This document shows positions 5,961 to 59,789 of a stretch of 64,000 bases of DNA, in pieces. The stretch lies in NCBI RefSeq assembly GCF_000340215.1, contig NW_006921537.1, positions 4,595,947 to 4,659,946 of the forward strand, written 5' to 3'. The position numbers and the translations under genes were made by a program. The DNA comes from Pseudocercospora fijiensis CIRAD86. Lineage: Eukaryota; Ascomycota; Dothideomycetes; Mycosphaerellales; Mycosphaerellaceae. Position 1 is the stretch's first letter. Each line of letters begins with the position of its first letter. Below the pieces are notes generated by a model. It was not told the origin of the DNA, did not search any database, and was given only the letters and a program-made list of their open reading frames with translations.

Positions 5961-6060
5961 NNNNNNNNNNNNNNNNNNNNNNNNNNNNNNNNNNNNNNNN
6001 NNNNNNNNNNNNNNNNNNNNNNNNNNNNNNNNNNNNNNNNNNNNNNNNNNNNNNNNNNNN
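5961..6060. other. Assembly gap (100 N)
   Basis: Exactly 100 undetermined bases, the usual placeholder for a gap of unknown size. It lies between the leader and the gag of the giant LTR element, so the gag start may be missing. Confidence 0.95.
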
Positions 6061-9685: not shown

Positions 9686-10239
9686 TTAATTAGTCCGGCG
9701 GTCGGCCTGCCCCCGCTCCTACTACCTTTTCCGACCTCGCTTAGACTAGCCCTAGCTTGTCCTAGCATTCCCGGCGGCCCCGGCATTCCCGCGTCCCCGC
9801 AATTGCCCTCTAGTAGCACCCTATATAAAAGCCGCCTAGCTAGGCACTATATCTAGGAGCGGGTATACGACGACGTACTAGTCCTAGCTATATAGCGCTA
9901 GTTCTCTCTCGAAGATCCTTCCTAGCTATACCCGACGATTAGCCTTACTCGGCTCGGGCGTACGGAAGCGATTCTCGAGCCTATAACTCGTAACAACTAG
10001 GCGATAATCCTTTAGTAGTCGGAAGCGAATAGGTTTTATAACTAGCATAAGCGGTACTATAGGTTTTAAAGCTTTCGAAGGTTCTCTACCTAGCTACTAT
10101 CTATTAAGAAAATGCTTAAGGAAGATTCAGATACTAGCCGTACGGTCGGAGTTTATAGTATATATAAGAAAAAGATAGATAAAGTAAGACGGTAAGACCT
10201 ATAGAAGCTAGTACTACGATAACCGGGAGTATAACGACC

Positions 10240-22200: not shown

Positions 22201-22873
22201 GTCGGTCGATTAAAGTAGGACGATACTATAGTATAGTAACATATTTAAAGACTCTTTCGCAACCTTAACTAAGAAGGCTCCTTATATATGCTTAAGAACT
22301 ATTTAAAGTAGTATCGCAAGGATGTAGCGTCGGCATACTNNNNNNNNNNNNNNNNNNNNNNNNNNNNNNNNNNNNNNNNNNNNNNNNNNNNNNNNNNNNN
22401 NNNNNNNNNNNNNNNNNNNNNNNNNNNNNNNNNNNNNNNATAATTTCTACCGATATTAGCCTACGCTTAACACTAGGGAGGAGTTTAATTAGGGAGGCTA
22501 GGGATTTATATACTAATAGGAACCTAGTAAGGCAGACCTTCCTACTAACTAGCGGCAGTCTAGCGCCCCTTTAGCGAAACCTACTACCTACGCTTCGAAA
22601 GTCTCTACTCCTAGTAGAGTACTCCCGAACGTTAACTCCTAGCAGCTTAGTACCCCTAAGAAACAGCCTCCTTAGCTATCTTCTTCAAAGCAGCCTGCGA
22701 ACCCTATAGCTAATCCGAATAAGCGACAGACCCGCTAGGATATACGGGCTAAGGCGACGCGGACCTAGGCTCTTATCGACTAATTTAACTAGTAGGGGCG
22801 AGGAGGCAATTATAGCGGCTAGGGCCGTAAAGGTAACTATAGTAGACTAGCGACTCGTAGTAGAAAGAAATAA
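19285..22873 (+). pseudogene. Third ORF of the giant LTR element with a C-terminal 2-oxoglutarate/Fe(II) oxygenase-like region
   Basis: A single reading frame continues from about 19285 to the N gap at 22340 with only Trp/Gln-type stops. A frame resumes after the gap and ends at a TAA at 22871 behind an Arg/Gly-rich tail (RGGNYSG). The N-terminal half is basic and helical, with a Pro/Ser/Arg-rich linker. The C-terminal half (about 20640-22330) resembles fungal proteins of the double-stranded beta-helix oxygenase type. YIN at 21583-21591 fits an ancestral H-x-D changed by CpA and TpG transitions. LPYLLYGA (21937-21957) fits LPHLLHGA, and an Arg follows at 21982. The oxygenase call rests on this motif spacing and on remembered family similarity. 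Substrate is unknown. The alternative is an unrelated structural ORF. Confidence 0.5.
22340..22439. other. Assembly gap (100 N)
   Basis: One hundred N inside the third ORF of the giant element. The frame on either side is coding-like, so the missing bases are probably part of the same gene. Confidence 0.95.
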
Positions 22874-48839: not shown

Positions 48840-48847
48840 GGATTCAT
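48840..48847. repeat. hAT target-site duplication, left
   Basis: GGATTCAT, against GGATTAAT at 58670-58677: seven of eight bases are identical. Eight bases is the diagnostic length for hAT insertions. The chromovirus frame is continuous across the two flanks. Confidence 0.75.
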
Positions 48848-49300
48848 TAGACCCCGTAGCAGTTTGGCTTCCGAACTACTAAACGTATATAGTTTAGTTT
48901 CTTAGCGCCGAACTAGCTCCCTAGTTCCGGTTTAGTTTTTTCGAACTATATAGATTCCTAGTTTGAACTAGAGACTATATTAGTTTTACTATAAGGATAC
49001 TCTTATTCGACTGCCGGCTACGATTGCCGGCTATAATAGGAACTATATTATATTTACTACGCTCTTTTACCGTTACTAGGGCGTAGTTGCCGTTACTAGG
49101 GCGTAGTTTTACTATAAGGACACTCTTATTCGACTGCCGGCTACGATTGCCGGCTATAATAGTTACTAGGTTATATTTACTACACTCTATTACCGTTGCT
49201 AGGGCGTAGTTACCGTTACTAGGGCTTAGTTGCCGTTACTAGGGCGTAGTTGCTATTACCGGGGCGTAGTTACCGTAGTTGCGAAAGCTTACCTATATAA
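48848..49300. repeat. Left terminal and subterminal repeats of the hAT element
   Basis: After the terminal repeat, GAACTA/TAGTTT-type words recur to about 48970. A 123-bp unit then occurs twice (starting 48982 and 49105, AGTTTTACTATAAGGA), each with GCCGGCTACGATTGCCGGCT. Between and after them GCCGTTACTAGGGCGTAGTT recurs in tandem, about seven times in all to 49280. Subterminal repeat arrays are typical transposase-binding regions of hAT elements; no gene seen. Confidence 0.7.
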
Positions 49301-49744
49301 CGTTACGTAGGCGGCAACATTTAGGGCTTCGCGATATTCTTATATCTTTTAAATTCTTCCTCTATACCTATACTAACAATAACTACTATACGCTACGCCC
49401 CTACCCCTTTTCCTTATAATAGTAAAAGAGAAGCGCGCCGCGCGCTAAATAGAAGATAGAACTAAAGACCGCGAGTTTGTTTTGCCTTAGTATCTAACTA
49501 AAAAGCGTAAGACTAAAGAGGAGTACTCTACGAAGAAGAATTCCGTACGAGACCGCGAGAGAAAGGAGAAGATAGATAAGGATAAAAGAGCTAAGGATAA
49601 GAGAAGAACGGCGCGGAATAAGGTATTCTATCGATAGCTAGCGCCTATAGAAAAAAGTAAAGGTTAGAATAAGAAGACAACCTAAAAGAAGGCTAAGAGG
49701 AGGAAAGAATTACGGCTAGTTTTCGAGCGTAAAGTTCTAGTAGC

Positions 49745-49851
49745 GTAAGTTAATCTAGCTAGCGGCCGTAGCTAGTAGCTATAGCCGGCAGCCGTAGCCG
49801 GTAGCTATAGCCGGTATATTTTTCTTTAAAACGTTAACTAATAGTATTTAG
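49745..49851 (+). other. Inferred intron 1 of ORF A with TAGCCGG motif
   Basis: GTAAGT donor, GTTAACTAAT branch-like sequence and TATTTAG acceptor. Three to four TAGCCGG-type motifs lie inside (TATAGCCGGCAGCCGTAGCC and following). Removal keeps the frame open. Confidence 0.6.
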
Positions 49852-50350
49852 ACCTATAGCCGCTACCTCTATCGATACGACCGATAGTAATAGAGATATT
49901 TAGATAGCCGAGAATAATAATACTAGAGTTTAGGATACCGCGATAGAGCTTAATACTACGAATAAAGGAACTAAAAAAAGCGAGGAGATACTATACGTCG
50001 ATCTAGTAATAGGTATAGTCTTAGGGCCTAACGCTATAGACGATAAGCGCTAGGAGTAGATCGAGTATAGTTAAAGAGACGAGATACTAGTAAAGGGCTA
50101 AGGTATAAGTCCTATTAATCTAGAAAATTATAGTTAAAGCTACTACGAAAAGCTAGTAAGGATTAGAATCGAGACTAGTCGTCTTTATATCCTCGATATA
50201 GAGTAGAAGTTTCTTTATTAGTATTAGAGCGAAGCCTTTACGTCTATAAAGGCAAAGTAGCTTGCGATTAATACGATCGAGGCTAGGTATCTAGAGACGG
50301 TAGAAGTATTACTAAAGGAGGAAGGGATATAGGTAATTATTCTATACTCG

Positions 50351-50398
50351 GTATATATAGCTGGCGTTCGTAGCCGGTAGATACTAATAGTTAAATAG
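50351..50398 (+). other. Inferred intron 2 of ORF A with TAGCCGG motif
   Basis: 48 bp: GTATAT donor, GTAGCCGGTAG inside, TACTAAT branch-like sequence and AAATAG acceptor. The frame is preserved across the junction. Confidence 0.6.
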
Positions 50399-51727
50399 AA
50401 AGCGTTTCTCGAGGGTAGAGTACTACTACTATATAAAATCTTTACTAAGGTAGAGAGGGCTTATATCCGGAATCTAAGCTACTAGTAGGATAGGTTAGCG
50501 TTAGAATTCTCTCAATCTCTATATAAGCCTTAAAAGGATTACCTATTTTAGCGATATAGCTTTATCTCGACTACTCCGTAGGTACCTAACGAAGCTCGAG
50601 CGCTCTTTAAGATCTTTACTAAGAAGCGGAAGGAGTTCGAAGATTAGGATTAGTTAATAGAGCTATTAGTTAGTCTTAGGTTTCGTAGTTAGACTCGGCC
50701 TAAGCATTTACTTATCGAGTATCTTATACCGAAAAAGGATAGATTAAGACTAAAAACGAGCTTAGATTCGTTAGGTATAGTAGCTTAGTTCCGTTAGTAG
50801 GAGAGAGCCGCCGTAAAGAAGGCAAAATTTAGGTAGTTAGGGTAGCTAGGAAAGAGATTCTAGTAGTTAGGCTAGCTAGAGTAGCTAGGAAAAAAAATCT
50901 AGTAGTTAGGTAGCTAGGAAACAAAAAAAAAGGTAGCTAGCTATTTACTACCTAGCTATTCCTAACGATACGATACTATAAAAGAAAGGGTGTTTCCCTA
51001 TAGCTACTAGTATATATCTACTACTCCTAAGTTCTTACCTTACCGTACGAAACTTTAAAACATGCCGACCGATATTAGAAATATACTAGGCGCTATACTA
51101 GGAAAGGTAATAACGAGACGATAATCGAAATAGTCTAATATACGAGCGAGATTGCGACAACGTCGAGAGGAGGTCGTATACTTACCTTCGAGCCTATCGA
51201 GTCCTAGACGACGATTAGGGCTAGATTTATCCTCTCCGAATCCTAGTAGTAGGAATTTATTATAGGGTACTACTACCTAGTCCTTACCTTTACGGAGTCT
51301 AAGTAGAAGGTTGTTCGGAGATATAAGAATATCGAGTTTTAACCCGGAAATCTTCGAAAAGGCTAGCTAGGTATATCTTTAGAAACCCGAGTATATAGAG
51401 TAGTTTAATTAATAGGTCTATAAGATATAGTTCCCTTTATACTTACGTTTAAAGGAGTATAAACTCCGGAAGTACTCGATACGATAAGGTAGTAAAGAGC
51501 GAACGGATATATTCTAGAAGTTCTTTATAGAGGGGGTATTATACCGTTATACGACTTCTCGACTTAAAGGTTAACTAGTAATTATCTATAACTTCTACGG
51601 TTTAATCTTAAAATACCCGAAACTAGGGGATAGGAACTTATCGCCTACGAACTATCTCTATTCTAAACAGTATCGGGAATCTTAAAGAGAGAGGAGAGTT
51701 AATATAGATATAGCGTTCTAGAAAGAG

Positions 51728-51806
51728 GTACGTCTTCTAAAATACCGGCTATAGCTACCGGCTATAGCTACCGGCTACAGATTCTAGCTACTTTAATTAA
51801 CCGTAG
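51728..51806 (+). other. Inferred intron of the hAT transposase with TAGCCGG motif
   Basis: GTACGT donor and CCGTAG acceptor; three tandem copies of CTACCGGCTATAG-type sequence lie inside. Exon phases on both sides are zero, and the joined frame reads FQKE then RSSQLLQATLKEALG. Confidence 0.6.
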
Positions 51807-52761
51807 AGATCTAGCTAATTATTATAGGCTACGCTTAAGGAAGCTCTAGGATTAAAGGCTACCGATTTCTCCCCCGAAGACTTGAAGTAACTAGTAAACG
51901 AAATGCTAGCTATAAACGGTCTTCCGGAAGACTTCTACGAAAGGGAGTCTCTATAGAAGATATATCTATATCTTATAAACTACCCTCCCCTATTTCTCGG
52001 CGTAATAACCTAGCGTATTATATTCGAAAAGAATAAAGAGGCTACGTTAGACGATATTCGGGAGATCCTCCGTAATACTCGCCGAGTAGCTATTACTATC
52101 GATAGCTAGTTAAGCCGGACTATAAGAGCCTCCTTCCTCTCGATTATACTATACTTTATTAATTCGGATTAGAAACTCTAGGAACTTATAATCGGATTCC
52201 TTAAAATTCTAGGTTCCTATACTAGTAAGGATATAGCGAAGCTTATCTATACGGTAATAGATAGGGTTAGCGTAATAATGAAACTAATCTCGATTACTAC
52301 GGATAACGCTAGTAATAATCGAACATTATATAAGGCGTTATATATACAATTTACTCGTATATATCTTTAAAATTACTAATTATATCGATAGGGTCGAGTA
52401 CGTAAAGGAGATTATAAGGTCTATAATCTAGCTTAATCTTCCGAATATTGAGCTCGCTACGATTCCGGATACGTACGATAATACGTACGATAATAACGAT
52501 AAAGAGGAGCCTAGTAATAGCCCTAGCCCTATTAAATCGGAGCCGACGTCGATACTAGTTATATCCTTATAGAAGTTTCCCTACCTCGCTTATATAGTTT
52601 AAATCGCGATCCGAGCCTTCTTTAAGACGCTTAAAATTGCACTATTAAACGACGACTAATAGAAGATCCTAAATAAGGATAAAGCAAAGTCGAAAGTCGA
52701 GAAACTCGTTATAGTAATAAGACGGGATAAGGTAGAGAGCCTCGCTCTCGTTTTATATTAG

Positions 52762-52830
52762 GTATAACTTTTGTCTATAGCCGGTACCCGTAGCCGGTAA
52801 CCTAGTATAGTTCTAACTCTTTTTCTCTAG
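52762..52830 (+). other. Inferred intron of the hAT transposase with TAGCCGG motif
   Basis: GTATAA donor, two TAGCCGGTA motifs, TTCTAACTC branch-like sequence and a pyrimidine-rich CTCTAG acceptor. Both phases are zero, joining LALVLYQ to LRRLVIYT. Confidence 0.65.
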
Positions 52831-54184
52831 CTTCGTCGTCTAGTAATATATACGAACTCGAGCTTATAGAGATATAACCGATTCGAGGCTATTTAAAAGA
52901 ACCTAATCGAGCGCCTTAAAACTAATACCTAGAATATCGTATAGAATAAGCGATAGCAAAAGCGGCCTCCTTAGCGCCTACTCCGTTTTACCTAAGACGT
53001 TAAGACCTAGTTCGATTCGACTTTCTATATAGTTATAAGGGGATATACTTTACGTATCGCTCTCGAGATCTATTAGAGTTCCGAGAGTATTAAGTAGCTT
53101 AGGCTTAGTCCCGCCGAATAGCGCTAAGTAGAGTATCTCGTCGATATTAGTAAGCATTACGCGAAGGTTACTACTACGATTAGAAGAACCCGAGGACCGA
53201 CAATCTACCTTATCTTTACGTACTATAACTAGCTCTTTAACGAGCTCGACGAAACTATAGCTAAGCTAGCTAAGAAGAGCGTTCCCTAGAAAGTAGCTAT
53301 AACGAAAGCTGTAGATACCTCCTATACTAAGTTATATAAATATTATAGTGCTACCTTTCAGTCGTTCGGGGATATCTATAGCGTTACGTACTTACTTAAC
53401 CTAGTAGAAAAGGATATATACTAGTAGAAGCTAGAATAGAAAGGGGACGAGGAATAGCCTAAGTATTACTAGACTATTCTAGAAAAGATATTCTACGAGC
53501 GTCGGAAAGAAACTAGTCTAAATATAGCTCCTATAAAGAAAAAGAAGGTTTAGATAGCTCTAATATTATACCTGTTTCGTAGGTAGGAAATAGAGGCAGA
53601 AGAGGAAGCAACTACTAAAGTAAATAAAGAAGAGTTCGATCTCTATCGGCGCGTAGGTAAGTACTAATTTAGCGAAACCCGTAGGCTCGGAAAGAGGGCT
53701 AATAATCTCTAGATCTTACCGGTCTTCTAGACGAATTCGGAGACGATATTCTCGCTATATAGTAGCGGTTAGAGCCTAAGTTTCTAACGATAGCGTCGGT
53801 TGCTCGGGACGTCCTCGCTATACCGAGCGTAGGTATAGGCTATAAGAGGTCTTTTAGTATCGCTCGTTACTAGGGCCGCTTTAATCGAATATACTCGCCT
53901 ACTACCTTCGAATCTATTATAGTATTCCGATACTATCTCCTTTACTAGAATCGCTAAGGTAGGTTACTAAAGATTATACTAAAGGACTTAATCGAGGAAT
54001 TAGAAAACCTTAAGATCGAAGAAACCTAGGAGCGCGAAGAGAATACGAAATTTAGTCTAAGCGAAACCCTAATTAGCGATAACGAAGAGAAGGAGGGCGG
54101 AGGTAGAAAGCGATACCGGATTAAGAAGCGGAAACGTATATAGGCTTAGAGTAGCTTTAAGGAGACGAAGCGTTTATATAGAAG

Positions 54185-54241
54185 GTAACGTAGCCGGCGT
54201 ATATAGCCGGTATATATCTTTAATATATTCCGAATTCCTAG
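54185..54241 (+). other. Possible intron or 3' spacer with TAGCCGG motifs after the transposase
   Basis: It starts GTAACG, contains GTAGCCGGCG and ATAGCCGGTA, and ends TTCCTAG. It could be a last intron or simply the start of the spacer, since no clear exon follows. Confidence 0.35.
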
Positions 54242-54555
54242 AACCTAAATAGACTAGTTGCTATAGCAACCTACCCCGCTTATATACGGACTATTTCTAA
54301 TTCTCTATTCGCTCTTCCTCTCCTTCTTCCCTTTCCCTATATTCTTAAAGATAAATATACCTTAAGGATTCGGCTCTTCGGGCCTTCCTAAGCTAGCTAC
54401 CTCCCCTTCCTTAAGCGACTATCCTTTATACGAATCTAACGATAACCTACTAAGGCGGTTTAATAAAAGACTATTTATTCTAGAAGGTAAGAAGTATTAA
54501 TATCTCCTTACGGTTATATACTTATTAATTTTCTAGGTTCTACCGATATACCCTT

Positions 54556-55700
54556 ATCGCCTAAACGCGTAGATAAATATCTTTAGAGACTAAAGGGTAA
54601 GGGTAAAGTAAGCTAAGTATAGGGAGACCGTAGCGAGAACGAGATATCGGAAGAGTAAGACTCTCTATAGTATATACGAAGGAAGGGGATTCCTCGGAAA
54701 ACAGTACTAAAAAATAAGAAGGCTTTAGGTAGATAAGAGAAGGCTAAAAAGAATAGGCGGACGAAGGCTATCGCGAAGAAAAGTTATCTTTCTATTAAAA
54801 AAAGGAAATAAGGTAGGACTCGACGATAACGAAGCGGCGCTTTAAACTAGGTACTATTACCCTTCGCTAGATCCGGCTTTTCTAAAACAAAAGAGGGACC
54901 GAGCTTTTAATTACTAAGACTCCCTTCTAGCGACTCGTCCGAGAAATTATATTAGACTTTCGGTCTAGTATACGATTTACGGCTAAAGCAATTAGTACTC
55001 TTTAGAAAGCTACGGAGGTATTTCTCGTAACCGAGCTTAAGCTTTTAAACCTCCTTGCTATCTATACGAAGCGGGTTACTCTTTAAAATAAAGATATATA
55101 GCTTCTAGCTAAAATTCGGCGTCGGTTTATAGCGGATTAGTTAGAAATTGTATTTAGTCGTTAGATTAACCTAGGAGGAGGCCTATTTTCGTATCCTTTT
55201 ACCGGCTATAGGTACCGGCTATATTTCTAATTTTATCTCCGCGCCGTCTCTAAATCTAAGGTACGAAGTAGAAACCTAGCGCTCTATATTTACCCGGCTG
55301 TTATAGAGACGAGCTATATTTAGATTAGTTTCTTCGTATATCGTAACCTAGCGGGTAGTAAGCGAAAGGGCGATAGAACGTTTATAATACGTCTCTATTT
55401 AGACCTAAAATATAAAGGTCCTAAGGAGCCCTAGTATCCTAACTATAAGGAGATTCTTTAGTATTAGTACTTTAATCCTCTATACTACGAGGTAGATAGT
55501 AAGCCTACGAGAGAGAAACTTTAACGAGAAATTCTCTATAATACGTAGCGCTATTATATAGCTATAGATACGTACTAAGTCTAGTAACTCGAAGAAGAAT
55601 TAAGATAGCGTATTAGCGACCGAGGAGGAGATCGATAGTATACTAGTAGAGTCGAGGTCTTATAAGCGAAGTATAAGATAATATAGGCTCCTAGTTATTT
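54556..55700 (+). pseudogene. Histone H3-like protein 1, with basic tail and C-terminal extension
   Basis: The histone fold is read at 54832-55160: FKLGTITLR, then ELLITKTPFQRLVREI and ILDFRSSIRFT, followed by ISTLQKATEVFLV, LNLLAIYTKRVTL and NKDIQLLAKIRRRF. This aligns without gaps to the H3 alphaN, alpha1, alpha2 and alpha3 segments and has no CENP-A-type longer loop 1. Upstream (about 54556-54840), in a neighbouring phase, lies a basic tail with GIPRKTVLKNKKALG, so a small frameshift lies near 54796-54830. After an inferred intron (55191-55260) a C-terminal extension with coiled-coil-like QLEEELRQ follows; its phase is uncertain. The protein would be expected to sit in nucleosomes or to mimic H3. 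Confidence 0.75.
55191..55260 (+). other. Inferred intron of H3-like gene 1 with TAGCCGG motif
   Basis: GTATCC donor; ACCGGCTATAGGTACCGGCT inside; TTCTAATTTTATC and CTCTAAATCTAAG near the acceptor. The 3' boundary is less certain than in the other introns, because the joined phase is ambiguous. Confidence 0.4.
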
Positions 55701-56250
55701 AGAGTAACGTACTATATAAATAACTAGGCGTACTACTCTTATTTACTTACGACCTATATCCTAGGATACTCTTCTCGTACTTTTTATACTCTTTTCTAAT
55801 ACCTTACCTATAATCGCTCCGCGATAACCGAGTAAATATAAGCTATAGGATTTCCGCTCGGTACCTTAGCCTTCGAGATACGGCGGAGTTAATTCTCTAT
55901 ATTACGTAGCGCTATTATATAGCGATAGATACGTACTAAGTCCGGCAACTCGAAGAAGAATTAAGATAGCGACCGAGTAGGAGATTAATAGTATATTAGT
56001 AGAGTCGAGGTCTTATAAGCGAAGTACGAGATAATATAGGCTCTTAGTCGTATAGAGTAACGTACTATAGAAATAACTAGGCGTACTACTCTTATTTACT
56101 CACGACGTATATCCTAGGATACTCTTCTCGTACTTTTTATACTCTTTTCTAATACCTTACCTATAATCGCTCCGCGATAACCGAGTAAATATAAGCTATA
56201 GGGTTTCCGCTCGGTACCTTAGCCTCCGAGATAGGGCGGAGTTGAATTTA
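55531..56250. repeat. 361-bp tandem duplication in the hAT element
   Basis: Unit 1 (55531-55891) and unit 2 (55892-about 56250) are nearly identical, both starting ATTCTCTATA/T and containing ACTCGAAGAAGAATTAAGA and ATCGCTCCGCGATAACCGAG. The first unit overlaps the 3' end of H3-like gene 1, so the duplication copied its last coding part and downstream region. Confidence 0.85.
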
Positions 56251-56772
56251 GAGCGATAGCCGGCACTCGTAGCCGGTATATAGAGACGGTAGTAGGCCTT
56301 TTCCTACTAAATAACTAGCTTGTTTAGTATAGCCTACCTAATATTTCTTATATTTACTAGCAATAGGCCTAGGTTACTTATAAGATTACTATAGCTAGTA
56401 AAGGCATTACTGAAGAATATCTATACTATAGTAGGATACTATTATTACGCCGGCTATTTATTAAAAGAAGGCTTTCGCCTAGTACTATACTAGCTATATA
56501 TACCGGCTATATTTCAAAGTTTGCCGTACCTGCCTTTTTTAGCCGTATCTACCTTCTTTCCTTACTCTAACGTTACTATAATATAGGCTTACGCGACGCT
56601 TACTCTATTATCTAGCGATACCGCGATACTACCTCTCTTACTATATTTAACCTTCGTATCGATACCTATACCTCTACGCTCTATATCTACTACCTCTATA
56701 ATACCCTCGCTCCGCGCGCGCCTTTGTATACCTTTATAACGCACTTTTTTCCTTAATTCGACGACTTTTATA
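56251..56772. other. Spacer between the two H3-like genes
   Basis: It holds TAGCCGG-type motifs near 56255-56275 and 56500 and a pyrimidine-rich, CTA-rich stretch (56560-56760) that may be the promoter and 5' leader of H3-like gene 2. No convincing frame was recognised. Confidence 0.4.
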
Positions 56773-57741
56773 ATACCGAGTCTACTTAACTAAGTTACGA
56801 CGCCTCGTAAGAAGGGACCTACTACTTCTACGGGTCGTAATAAGACCGGAAATAGTAGAACGAGTATATTATATTAACGTAAGAAGGCTACTACTACTAT
56901 CGCTAGCTCCGATACTAGAAAGGGCGTCGCGAGTAAGGCTCCGCGTAAGACAATAGCGGGTAAGGCTCTACGTAAGACGACAACTAGCGCTTCTACTACT
57001 AGTAGCAATAATCGTACGAAGCGTCGATAGCGTCTAGGAAGTAAGTCCTATTTATAGCCGGTAGCGTAGCCGGTAGCGTAGCCGGTAGCGTAGCCGGCAT
57101 TCTTACTATCTTTTTACTAATCCTTCTTTAGCCGTAGTCCTCCGTAAGATTCGGAAGTATTAGAAGAGTTCTAATCTCCTAATCTATAAAGCTCCTTTCT
57201 AACGACTTATTCGCGAAATTGCCTAGGATTATAGAACGGACCTTCGCTTCTAAGCCTCCGCGATAGGCGCCCTTTAAGAGCCTATAGAAGCCTACCTAGT
57301 TCGTATCTTCGAATATATATTTCTCTTCTACCTCTTTTCGGACTATACTAATACTATTTTAGCGGTTAACCTTATAGCTATCTACGCGAAGCGTATAACG
57401 ATTATAGACAAGGATTTTAAAGCACTCGATTAGATTCTAAAAGGCTAGAATATCTATATTCGAGATAGTACTAGGTAGGATAGATATTCTAGTAGGAAGG
57501 ATATTCGTAGTATCGTCTATAAGCTTTTCTATATACGAAATAAGCCGCTGTTATACGGCGCTATATACCGCGCTCTAAATACTCTCTAAGTATATATATA
57601 TAGTATAGTATACTTTATTAGCCGTACGGAATAGAAGTCTTCGAAAATCCCGTTAGTACTAAGGAGTAAAAAGGCCGGCTACGCTGCCGGCTACGCTACT
57701 AGGTTTTTTAAAGAACTAAAAGAAGATATACATTCCGGTTA
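56773..57741 (+). pseudogene. Histone H3-like protein 2, with H3-type tail and an insertion in the fold
   Basis: Exon 1 (56773, ATA for ATG, to 57040) encodes a Lys/Arg/Thr-rich tail with KGVASKAPRKTIAGKALRKT, closely like the APRKQLA/KAARK part of H3 tails. An intron (57041-57131) splits a Thr codon. Exon 2 begins VVLRKIRKYQKSSNLL and continues PFQRLIREIAQDYRTDLRFQ, ASAIGALQEPIEAYLV and AIYAKRITIIDKDFKAL. This matches H3 nearly residue for residue, except for about 14 extra residues between the LFE-equivalent and the NL/AIHAKR segment. About 100 further residues follow the fold. The stops at TAG are Gln-type. Confidence 0.8.
57041..57131 (+). other. Intron of H3-like gene 2 with tandem TAGCCGG motif
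   Basis: GTAAGT donor, four tandem copies of GTAGCCGGTAGC-type sequence, TTTACTAATCC branch site and TTCTTTAG acceptor. The join restores RLG-T-VVLRKIR, exactly where H3 reads RPGTVALREIR, which makes this the best-supported intron in the window. Confidence 0.8.
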
Positions 57742-57748
57742 ATTTATA

Positions 57749-58286
57749 TTAGTTTGGATTTTTATAAAAAGAAAACAGGGAAAAATAAGGATAGTTAAAG
57801 AGTCTAATGCTTATAGTTATAGGCATTATCCCTGTTTTCTAGACTATATTATATACCTGCCTTCGTAACTCTACCTAATACTCCCTCTAAATATCCTTAT
57901 ACTCTACCTACTAGAAATTTAACTAGGTACCTAGACCTATAGCTACCTCTATATCTTTTACTATCTTCTATAGGTTAAAGGACTCCTCTATAGCAGCCTC
58001 TACCTCCTTATATAATACGAAGTTACTACCTACCCTATCCTTAATATCTCCTAAATAACTAAGAGTTCTAAGGAACGAACTAGTATTCGGCCTTAGTATA
58101 GCGAGTAGCTAGTAGAACGTTCTATAAAGCTGCCTTATAGCTCTTTTATATACTATACCGATACCGAGGGAGGAGCTATCCTAGTACTTAATATTAGAGA
58201 ATAGTTTATTTAGAAATTAGTCGAACTTCTTAAGGAGGGCTTCTAGGGAAATCGATAAGTTCTACCTAGATCTAGATAATAACATT
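57749..58286 (-). pseudogene. Unrecognised antisense hAT cargo ORF D
   Basis: It runs from ATG at 58286 to TAA at 57749, about 178 codons, one frame interrupted only by TAG and TAA where Gln/Trp are likely. It reads as a helical protein (SISLEALLKKFDQFLNKLFS, SFLRTLSYLGDIKDRVGSNF, EVEAAIEESFNLQKIVKDIE) with coiled-coil character and no signal peptide or membrane segment. It converges with H3-like gene 2. A 10-bp inverted repeat at 57771-57780 and 57830-57839 (GAAAACAGGG) lies in its 3' part. Family unknown. Confidence 0.5.
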
Positions 58287-58289
58287 CTA

Positions 58290-58669
58290 CCGAGCAGTTA
58301 GGGAATTAAATAGCGAGCGAAAGGATGAAATTTATACCTAATAAGTGCAGTTTCTAAACTAAACTATAATAGCTTATATATATATATGCTTTTGATTAGT
58401 TAGTGCCCTTAGCTAATTGTCTATAGATTTAGGGTTATATAAGTACCTTCCTATAACTGAAAAATGCCGGCTACGCTACCGGCTATACTCTCGTATCTTA
58501 TAAAGGGCTTGCTTCGAGTTACGTAGACATTCTTACACTTCTTAGAAACCGATAAATTCTATAGTTCGAACTAGCTAATCCTATAGTTGCTTAGCAAACT
58601 AACCTAAACCAAACTAGATCTTCGGCTTAGTAAACCAAACTAAACTAACCCGAACTACTACAGGGTCTA
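58290..58669. repeat. Right subterminal and terminal region of the hAT element
   Basis: It contains a TAGCCGG-type pair near 58465-58490 (GCCGGCTACGCTACCGGCTA) and repeats of AAACTAA/CCAAACTA words near 58590-58660. It ends CTACAGGGTCTA, the right terminal inverted repeat. No gene seen. Confidence 0.65.
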
Positions 58670-58677
58670 GGATTAAT
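58670..58677. repeat. hAT target-site duplication, right
   Basis: GGATTAAT, one mismatch to GGATTCAT at 48840-48847. Confidence 0.75.
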
Positions 58678-59789
58678 ATAGTTAATGTCCTCCTTTCTAG
58701 CTATTCTAAAACGCTATTATTAGCTACCGAGGTATATTTTTATAGCATAATAGCTTAGTACAGGATTACTAAGTAGAATAGTAGCTCCGTAGTAGAGGTT
58801 GTCTATATTAATAGTATAGGTACTAAAATCTAGAATCCTCTTATTACCGATATTATCCTTTAGAACTATATTAATATAGTATACTCTATAGGTCTAGTAT
58901 CTAGTCTAATCAAACTAAGTAAGGATTAGTATATTAGCTATTTAGGTCGTACTTCTATAATCTATACTAAATTATCTTTAGATAGTAGGTCGTCCTTAAT
59001 AGCCCTTAGTTAGTTTTAAAAGGCTTAAGCAGTCTTATCGGATTTCTGTTTAGCGTAGAGAAATTGTTCCTAAGTACGCTATTGTCTTAAATAGGGGTTG
59101 CTAAGCGTATTTAGTATAGTGTCCTTATAGGTTTGCTAGTCGATTTTAGATAGGTCTTTAAGCCTTAAGGGAATTAAAGTAGTTATCCTAGGTTCTCTTA
59201 GGGTCGCTATCGATATATTATATAGCGTAGACGACTAAGGCGTATTTAGTTAATAGCGCTATTAGTATATTGCGCTAGTTAAGCTTACAGTTACGGATAT
59301 AGTCGTTGTACTGCTTCCTATTAGAGCTATTAAATATAGTATAGTCCTTAAGTTTAGTATCCTTTCTTAGTACTAGTTCTTCTACTATAGGCGTCCTAAG
59401 TTTAGCCGTAAGGCGTTAGATAGCCGCGAAGTTCTTACAGACTTTCTTCTCTCGCTAGAGGGCTTAGAGTTTGTTACGTAGACAGGTCCTTAGGGGCCCG
59501 AGGTTAGGTAGTCTAAATAGTAGATAGCTACCCCGTTAGCCTATAACGAAGCCTTTATTTATAATATTGTTATAGCTATCTATCTTAGTCTATAATTAAT
59601 TAACTTAGTTAAATAGGCTATATAGAAGGCCTAGGTTAGTAATTAGTACGGTCGAATTGGTAGTTTCTTAGTGTATAGGTCTTAACCGTCTTACCTTAGT
59701 AGGAGGCTAGTTTTAGAGCGGATTTTAAGCCGTATTCTTAAATTAATTAACTATCTAGCTATAGCCCTAAAAGGGTAGATTAAATACTG
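58678..59789 (-). pseudogene. Chromovirus copy D gag, protease region and leader
   Basis: On the minus strand, leader sequence starts next to the LTR (59789 downwards). It is followed by gag homologous to 4371-5037 and 34025-34700, near 59400-59040. A protease/linker region like 23750-24110 follows, near 58900-58678. The hAT element then interrupts it. The zinc-knuckle segment seen in copies B and C was not found, so a deletion is likely. Confidence 0.65.

What the first reader, a model, noticed from the sequence alone, without database searches (positions are those of the whole stretch)
54556..57741. Two histone H3-fold genes carried inside a hAT transposon
Between hAT termini with a near-identical 8-bp target duplication, downstream of the transposase, two separate frames encode H3 folds. 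Gene 1 reads PFQRLVREIILDFRSSIRFT and gene 2 reads PFQRLIREIAQDYRTDLRFQ; both have basic tails and C-terminal extensions. They differ from each other and from canonical H3, so they are not a recent capture of one host gene. I know of no described hAT element encoding H3 variants. An element-borne H3 could influence chromatin at the element, silencing, or centromere/heterochromatin identity; that is inference.
Basis: partly seen in the sequence, partly recalled or inferred. Interest (0 to 1): 0.95.

Follow-up and report, generated by a model that had tools for sequence, protein, structure and literature searches.

The report
Known hAT transposon with histone H3 genes
A jumping-DNA family in this fungal genome, probably that of a banana pathogen, carries two broken histone H3 genes; this was published in 2019, and what is added here is that one gene has predicted introns and that both were likely working protein genes before the fungus's mutation defence wrecked them.

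Summary
Window 48848-58669 (9,822 bp) is a full-length copy of a hAT-type DNA transposon with 20-bp inverted ends and an 8-bp target duplication (GGATTCAT/GGATTAAT). It holds a transposase remnant and two histone H3-fold genes, all damaged by RIP. It matches the Pseudocercospora fijiensis element of Dhillon et al. 2019 (PMC6710886: 784 H3-like copies in 471 elements); a hAT element with an H3-like gene in Pyrenophora was published in 2013 (PMC3538342).

Added here: (1) three subfamilies carry both genes (25 of 25 copies read). (2) Gene 2 has two predicted GT-AG introns; the published "16-residue insertion" is very likely one of them (48 nt), which argues against a pure retrocopy origin of gene 2. 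(3) Fixed indels between subfamilies in H3 exons are multiples of three in 8 of 8 cases, against 5 of 16 outside. (4) Gene 1 is a divergent H3 with an intact relative, P0001.

Against a function: most codon-position tests are not significant, and the A/B spacers are unrecognisable, so they give no neutral yardstick. A role in chromatin is untested.

The parts
48840..48847 (.). left 8-bp target duplication GGATTCAT
48848..58669 (+). whole hAT-type element, subfamily A, RIP-damaged
   Evidence: ends set by copy alignment and duplications in other copies
48848..48867 (+). left terminal inverted repeat, 20 bp
   Evidence: differs from the right one at three C/T sites only
49931..50960 (+). ORF1, unknown, broken frame; no Pfam or protein hit; subfamily indels mostly break its frame
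51064..54160 (+). transposase remnant in several pieces whose frame changes at like places in most copies (probable introns); C-terminal hAT dimerisation region at about 53709-53900
   Evidence: weak PF05699 matches in copies L032 and L026, E 0.011 and 0.013, below the cut-off
54548..55140 (+). H3 gene 1 with long basic N tail; no intron; start ATA here (ATG in 7 of 25 copies); a private 1-base deletion in the window copy breaks the tail's frame; stop at 55138-55140
55530..56248 (+). 353-bp tandem duplication in the spacer
56878..57040 (+). H3 gene 2, tail exon (true start not determined)
57041..57131 (+). gene 2 predicted intron 1, 91 nt, GTAAGT...ACTAATCC...TTTAG, holds a TAGCCGG minisatellite; 3 nt from the place of host H3 intron 2
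57132..57314 (+). H3 gene 2, core exon a (aN to a2)
57315..57362 (+). gene 2 predicted intron 2, 48 nt; 5' end ATATAT here, GTATGT in 4 of 25 copies; very likely the published 16-residue insertion
   Evidence: PMC6710886
57363..57433 (+). H3 gene 2, core exon b (end of a2 to a3); the true end is uncertain
58650..58669 (-). right terminal inverted repeat, 20 bp
58670..58677 (.). right 8-bp target duplication GGATTAAT

Best explanation
This is a RIP-killed copy of a high-copy hAT-type DNA transposon that carries two different histone H3 genes, which were likely captured from a fungal chromosome and likely stayed protein-coding parts of the element until RIP destroyed the copies. Shown: the element's ends, target duplications, copies, both H3 genes, stops, intron signals and in-frame indels. 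Inferred: it moved by cut-and-paste through its own transposase, as hAT elements do; gene 2 came from an intron-bearing H3 gene near the host type; gene 1 is an older or foreign H3 variant; the proteins, while made, would have entered nucleosomes with host H4. What the element gained from that is untested; my first guess is weaker silencing of its own copies.
For: Element. H3 genes. Both genes in 25 of 25 copies read, in three subfamilies (9 copies picked by whole-element match, 15 by histone match, plus the window). Introns in gene 2: GT and AG kept in 25 of 25 for intron 1; AG in 25 of 25 and GT in 8 of 25 for intron 2, the rest AT, a change that RIP makes. Frame kept: fixed subfamily indels are multiples of three in 8 of 8 cases in H3 exons against 5 of 16 in spacer, block upstream of gene 2, intron 1 and the stretch after the gene 2 core, p 0.0017. 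Between A and C, where the spacer is homologous, gene 1 differs less than the spacer in RIP-blind coding, 17/579 against 42/531, p 0.00017. An intact gene 1 relative, P0001, exists.
Against: Gene 2 is not more conserved than the A/C spacer (14/233 against 42/531, p 0.22), and in its exon a A and C differ at 10/114 first and second positions but 0/26 fourfold third positions. Of six subfamily codon-position tests one is under 0.05, and of seven comparisons with host H3 or between the genes one is under 0.05 and one at 0.05. The A/B contrast of genes with spacer had to be dropped because that spacer aligns no better than shuffles. As controls the other genes of the element are mixed: transposase indels 3 of 4 multiples of three, ORF1 1 of 4, largely from a single B copy. 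Indel numbers are small, the upstream limit of gene 2 is arbitrary. No transcript, splicing or protein evidence.
Confidence: 0.55

Rival explanations
1. Passive transduplication, as published: a host H3 transcript or retrocopy was caught by chance between the ends, carried as a passenger without function, amplified and RIPped.
For: PMC6710886 argues this from missing introns; gene 1 has none. Most codon-position tests are not significant. AU does not reject gene 2 with host H3 (p 0.463) or gene 1 with host H3 (p 0.108).
Against: Two predicted introns in gene 2, one 3 nt from a host intron; in-frame indels 8 of 8; both genes kept in three subfamilies although spacer and 3' end turned over between A and B.
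Confidence: 0.38
2. One or both genes are CENP-A-like and would mark centromeres for the element's benefit.
For: Gene 1 has a few CENP-A-like letters (EAFLV, NLL, VTL) and a long N tail; AU does not reject gene 1 with CENP-A (p 0.152).
Against: Loop 1 of gene 1 has H3 length, while the host's own CENP-A has the longer loop; in the best tree host CENP-A groups with P0035, not with gene 1. RIP may have made some letters.
Confidence: 0.05
3. The H3 genes came by an independent insertion nested in this one copy.
For: Only the unusual length of the element.
Against: Nine other copies align over the same H3-bearing length, and 9 of 10 testable copies have identical duplications outside these ends.
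Confidence: 0.01

Closest known systems
H3-carrying hAT element of Pseudocercospora fijiensis (Dhillon et al. 2019, PMC6710886; parts 1-5 of 7 read)
   Same: 9.5-9.9 kb, 20-bp inverted ends, 8-bp duplications, one or two H3-like sequences per element, second one longer by 16 residues, all RIPped, original H3 on scaffold 6; genome size class and high copy number.
   Different: The paper reports no introns, calls the 16 residues a mutation, found no hAT dimerisation domain and treats the H3s as dead retrocopies of the host gene; here gene 2 has two predicted introns, a weak dimerisation-domain match is seen, and the two genes are distinct.
H3L-carrying hAT element of Pyrenophora tritici-repentis (Manning et al. 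2013, PMC3538342; passages read)
   Same: hAT element with a further unknown ORF and an H3-like gene between its ends.
   Different: About 5.6 kb, one H3-like gene, many copies undamaged and with ESTs; the 2019 paper found no sequence similarity between the elements. I could not compare the sequences.
Gene capture by DNA transposons in plants, such as Pack-MULEs (only as cited in PMC6710886)
   Same: DNA transposon amplifying captured host gene sequence.
   Different: Another superfamily; here two H3 genes are kept through three subfamilies beside a transposase.

Membership tests
hAT superfamily | 8-bp target site duplication | tested here: met
   Window one mismatch; 9 of 10 testable copies identical
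hAT superfamily | short terminal inverted repeats | tested here: met
   20 bp, three C/T differences in the window copy
hAT superfamily | transposase with C-terminal dimerisation domain (PF05699) | tested here: inconclusive
   E 0.011 and 0.013 in L032 and L026, 16.0 and 15.8 bits against a cut-off of 21.4; none of 47 genome hits lies in the window
hAT superfamily | DUF659 region reported for this family in the 2019 paper | tested here: inconclusive
   No Pfam match in the pieces I searched
histone H3 | core histone domain | tested here: met
   PF00125 in both genes above the cut-off; gene 1 best PDB sequence matches are H3
histone H3 | H3 fold | tested here: met
   Gene 1 model, Foldseek E 6.2e-6, probability 1.00, but TM about 0.4 and model confidence moderate; gene 2 not modelled
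CENP-A | longer loop 1 than H3 | tested here: not met
   Gene 1 has H3 loop length; host CENP-A has the longer one
CENP-A | groups with CENP-A in a tree | tested here: inconclusive
   Not in the best tree, but AU p 0.152
P. fijiensis H3-hAT family (PMC6710886) | length, ends, duplication, two H3s, 16-residue insertion in the second | tested here: met
spliceosomal introns (gene 2) | GT, branch-site-like CTAAT and AG, with the H3 frame continuous across | tested here: met
   Intron 1 GT and AG 25 of 25, CTAAT 24 of 25; intron 2 AG and CTAAT 25 of 25, GT 8 of 25
spliceosomal introns (gene 2) | splicing seen in RNA | not testable with these tools
   no RNA data on hand

The most novel reading that the evidence does not exclude
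A hAT lineage that carries its own pair of H3 variants as working cargo: two element-encoded nucleosome proteins kept in frame through the split of three subfamilies, one of them (gene 1) a distinct H3 variant lineage that survives intact elsewhere, used by the element to alter the chromatin that silences it.
Probability: 0.25. Interest if true: 0.75.

Novelty: already known. Interest (0 to 1): 0.35.

Why it matters
The element and its H3 cargo are in print, so the finding as given is not a discovery. What could matter is the correction: if gene 2 has introns and both genes kept their frames while subfamilies diverged, the published picture of a dead retrocopy passenger is incomplete, and the question becomes why two hAT elements in Dothideomycetes carry H3 at all. 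A transposon that makes its own nucleosome subunits would be a new way for an element to deal with silencing.

Tried and rejected
Nested or independent insertion of the H3s: rejected. CENP-A identity: not supported. Gene-against-spacer conservation between A and B as proof of selection: computed (p down to 2.7e-28 for B/C and 8.7e-26 for A/B), then withdrawn, because spacer and 3' end of A and B align no better than shuffles. Codon-position tests: mostly not significant. Protein searches with a transposase piece and with ORF1 found nothing at E 0.001. Loci encoding P0001 in viral and prokaryote genome contigs: none. A first PDB search used the wrong frame and found nothing; repeated in the right frame. 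Searches for papers on transposon-encoded histones: a phrase search returned 0; led to the two papers cited and otherwise to papers that I saw as listings only. Introner-like elements as source of the introns: papers seen as a listing only, not tested.

Full report
What was checked. The window lies in an unnamed 73.9-Mb genome of 30 contigs at C6:4595947-4659946. CpA is at 0.29 and TpG at 0.23 of expectation over the window, the mark of repeat-induced point mutation (RIP) in ascomycete fungi (established knowledge). In the named stretch two frames give histone matches once stops are read as residues: PF00125 at E 1.6e-20 for gene 1 and 9.8e-18 for gene 2. Neither frame is open.

The element. 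A search with 48840-58680 scored 10 of 760 candidates: the window and nine other copies, which match from query base 9 or 11; eight end at 9828-9832 and one at 9750, at 88-95% identity over the long pieces. This puts the element at 48848-58669, 9,822 bp, flanked by GGATTCAT and GGATTAAT. Of 20 copies fetched, 10 could be tested for both ends: 9 have identical 8-bp duplications and L019 has two mismatches with altered ends. The other 10 could not be tested: the right end was not found in the stretch (L020, L029-L031, L033-L036) or the left end is missing (L027, L028). The window's two inverted ends differ at three C/T sites. These are hAT features. The transposase frame is broken into pieces whose frame changes at like places in most copies, probably introns. 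Its C-terminal piece gives weak PF05699 matches in two subfamilies (E 0.011 and 0.013, below the cut-off), the domain that the published description could not identify; the DUF659 that it did report was not found in my pieces.

It is known. Dhillon et al. 2019 (PMC6710886; I read parts 1-5 of 7, that is abstract to methods, and passages) describe in Pseudocercospora fijiensis 784 H3-like copies in 471 hAT elements, full length 9.5-9.9 kb, 20-bp ends, 8-bp duplications, one or two H3 sequences per element, the second longer by 16 residues, all RIPped, with the original H3 on scaffold 6. Here the intact host H3 is on C6, and the histone search had 772 first-look candidates, 150 of them scored; of the 150 rows only two have no stop inside, the host H3 exon and the host CENP-A exon. 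Manning et al. 2013 (PMC3538342; passages) describe a hAT element with an H3-like gene in Pyrenophora tritici-repentis.

Three subfamilies. L026-L028 and L037 (B) and L039-L040 (C) differ from the window's group A. Both H3 genes were found in 25 of 25 copies read, the window included. Nine of these were picked by whole-element match and 15 by a histone match that fell in gene 1, so for the latter only gene 2 is informative. First-look candidates for a transposase piece, gene 1 and gene 2 are alike in number (370, 401, 407), of which 40 each were scored.

Gene 1. In L032 the frame runs 197 codons from an ATG (ATG in 7 of 25 copies, ATA in 18) to a stop present in 25 of 25. It has a tail of about 100 residues, two extra residues before TELLI and the ending KIRRRFIA; these are in all three subfamilies, and no intron interrupts it. 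Of 1,135 protein hits (120 listed) the best is P0001, an intact 164-residue H3 on a 1,189-base contig (118 bits, next 107); by eye it shares the extra residues and the RRRF ending. In a tree of 55 sequences gene 1 and P0001 group at 96/89, but P0001 was picked as the best hit and has a long branch, only 98 columns were used, and AU tests reject none of the alternatives tried (gene 1 with gene 2 p 0.314, with host H3 0.108, with CENP-A 0.152; gene 2 with host H3 0.463).

Gene 2. The core is closer to host H3 (52 of 78 readable residues of the third exon; gene 1 48 of 84). It is interrupted twice. The first gap, 57041-57131, begins GTAAGT and ends TTTAG; GT and AG are kept in 25 of 25 copies and CTAAT in 24; its place is 3 nt from host H3 intron 2. 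The second, 57315-57362, is 48 nt, has CTAAT and AG in 25 of 25 and begins GTATGT in 4, GTATAT in 4, ATATGT in 8 and ATATAT in 9; G-to-A after T is what RIP does, so GT is taken as the older state. Taking it out leaves the H3 reading continuous (GAA T|CG GTC AAC for host GAA GAC ACC AAC). It is very likely the published 16-residue insertion, by its length and its place in the second copy. The published argument that a transcript was captured therefore does not hold for gene 2, unless the introns were gained later. Splicing was not observed.

Were the genes in use? RIP exchanges C for T and G for A, so purine/pyrimidine coding is blind to it. By that measure A and B differ at 29/564 sites in gene 1 and 27/245 in gene 2 core exons. 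The contrast with the A/B spacer (148/534) cannot be used, since that spacer and the 3' end align no better than shuffles. Between A and C the spacer is homologous: gene 1 17/579 (p 0.00017 against spacer), gene 2 14/233 (p 0.22), spacer 42/531. Codon-position tests are weak: one of six between subfamilies under 0.05, and against host H3 or between the genes seven p-values from 0.046 to 0.23; in gene 2 exon a A and C differ more at first and second positions (10/114) than at fourfold third positions (0/26). The better sign is length change. Fixed indels between subfamilies are multiples of three in 8 of 8 cases in the H3 exons (four in gene 1, four in the 240 nt before intron 1), against 5 of 16 elsewhere (A/C spacer 4 of 7, block upstream of gene 2 1 of 6, intron 1 0 of 1, after the gene 2 core 0 of 2), p 0.0017, or 0.0040 without the last two. 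One further B-only row in the upstream block was not counted, and a -4/+4 pair there may be an alignment artefact. The element's other genes give 3 of 4 (transposase) and 1 of 4 (ORF1), largely from one B copy, and were not in the test. One-base deletions in gene 1 occur only as private changes, in the window copy and L038. I read this as both H3 genes being translated while the subfamilies split; it is inference from modest numbers.

Unexplained. Gene 2's introns differ less between subfamilies than its exons (A/B 1/126 against 41/422, p 0.0002; B/C p 0.0009; A/C p 0.087). Constraint on pyrimidine tracts, gene conversion or an invasive intron could each do this; none was tested.

How it most likely worked. 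By what is established for hAT elements, the transposase would cut and paste the element between its inverted ends, giving 8-bp duplications. The H3 proteins, while made, would have paired with host H4. Copies multiplied until RIP recognised them and destroyed the reading frames, splice sites and start codons. The duplication, copy number and damage are shown; transposition by this transposase, expression and any effect on chromatin are inferred.

Verdict. Observation confirmed, novelty claim refuted by the literature, chromatin role untested. The added details make the published passenger model incomplete for gene 2 and leave open a functional-cargo reading.

Noticed in passing
window 57041-57131 and 57315-57362: Predicted introns of gene 2 are more conserved between subfamilies, in RIP-blind coding, than the exons around them; no explanation tested.
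   Followed up: partly
window 48848-58669: Short TAGCCGG/CCGGCTA minisatellite clusters: 29 of the 44 window sites lie in the element (15% of the window), one array inside gene 2 intron 1 with copy number varying among copies.
   Followed up: partly
window 55530-56248: 353-bp tandem duplication in the spacer between the H3 genes; other copies differ in arrangement here.
   Followed up: no
L020 (G000:C8:3197109-3197383): A copy whose 275-bp 3' end sits inverted against its 5' end.
   Followed up: no
window about 603-1028: Read-through frame with Tf2-1-like SH3 and a weak chromodomain match, the end of a Ty3-type retroelement.
   Followed up: no
window 49931-50960: ORF1 upstream of the transposase, unknown, no Pfam or protein hit; the Pyrenophora element is also described with an unknown ORF.
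   Followed up: partly
L041 (G000:C5:605600-607600): Intact host CENP-A gene, two exons read, intron after LPFSRLV.
   Followed up: partly
window 5961-6060 and 22340-22439: Runs of 100 N, probably assembly gaps.
   Followed up: no
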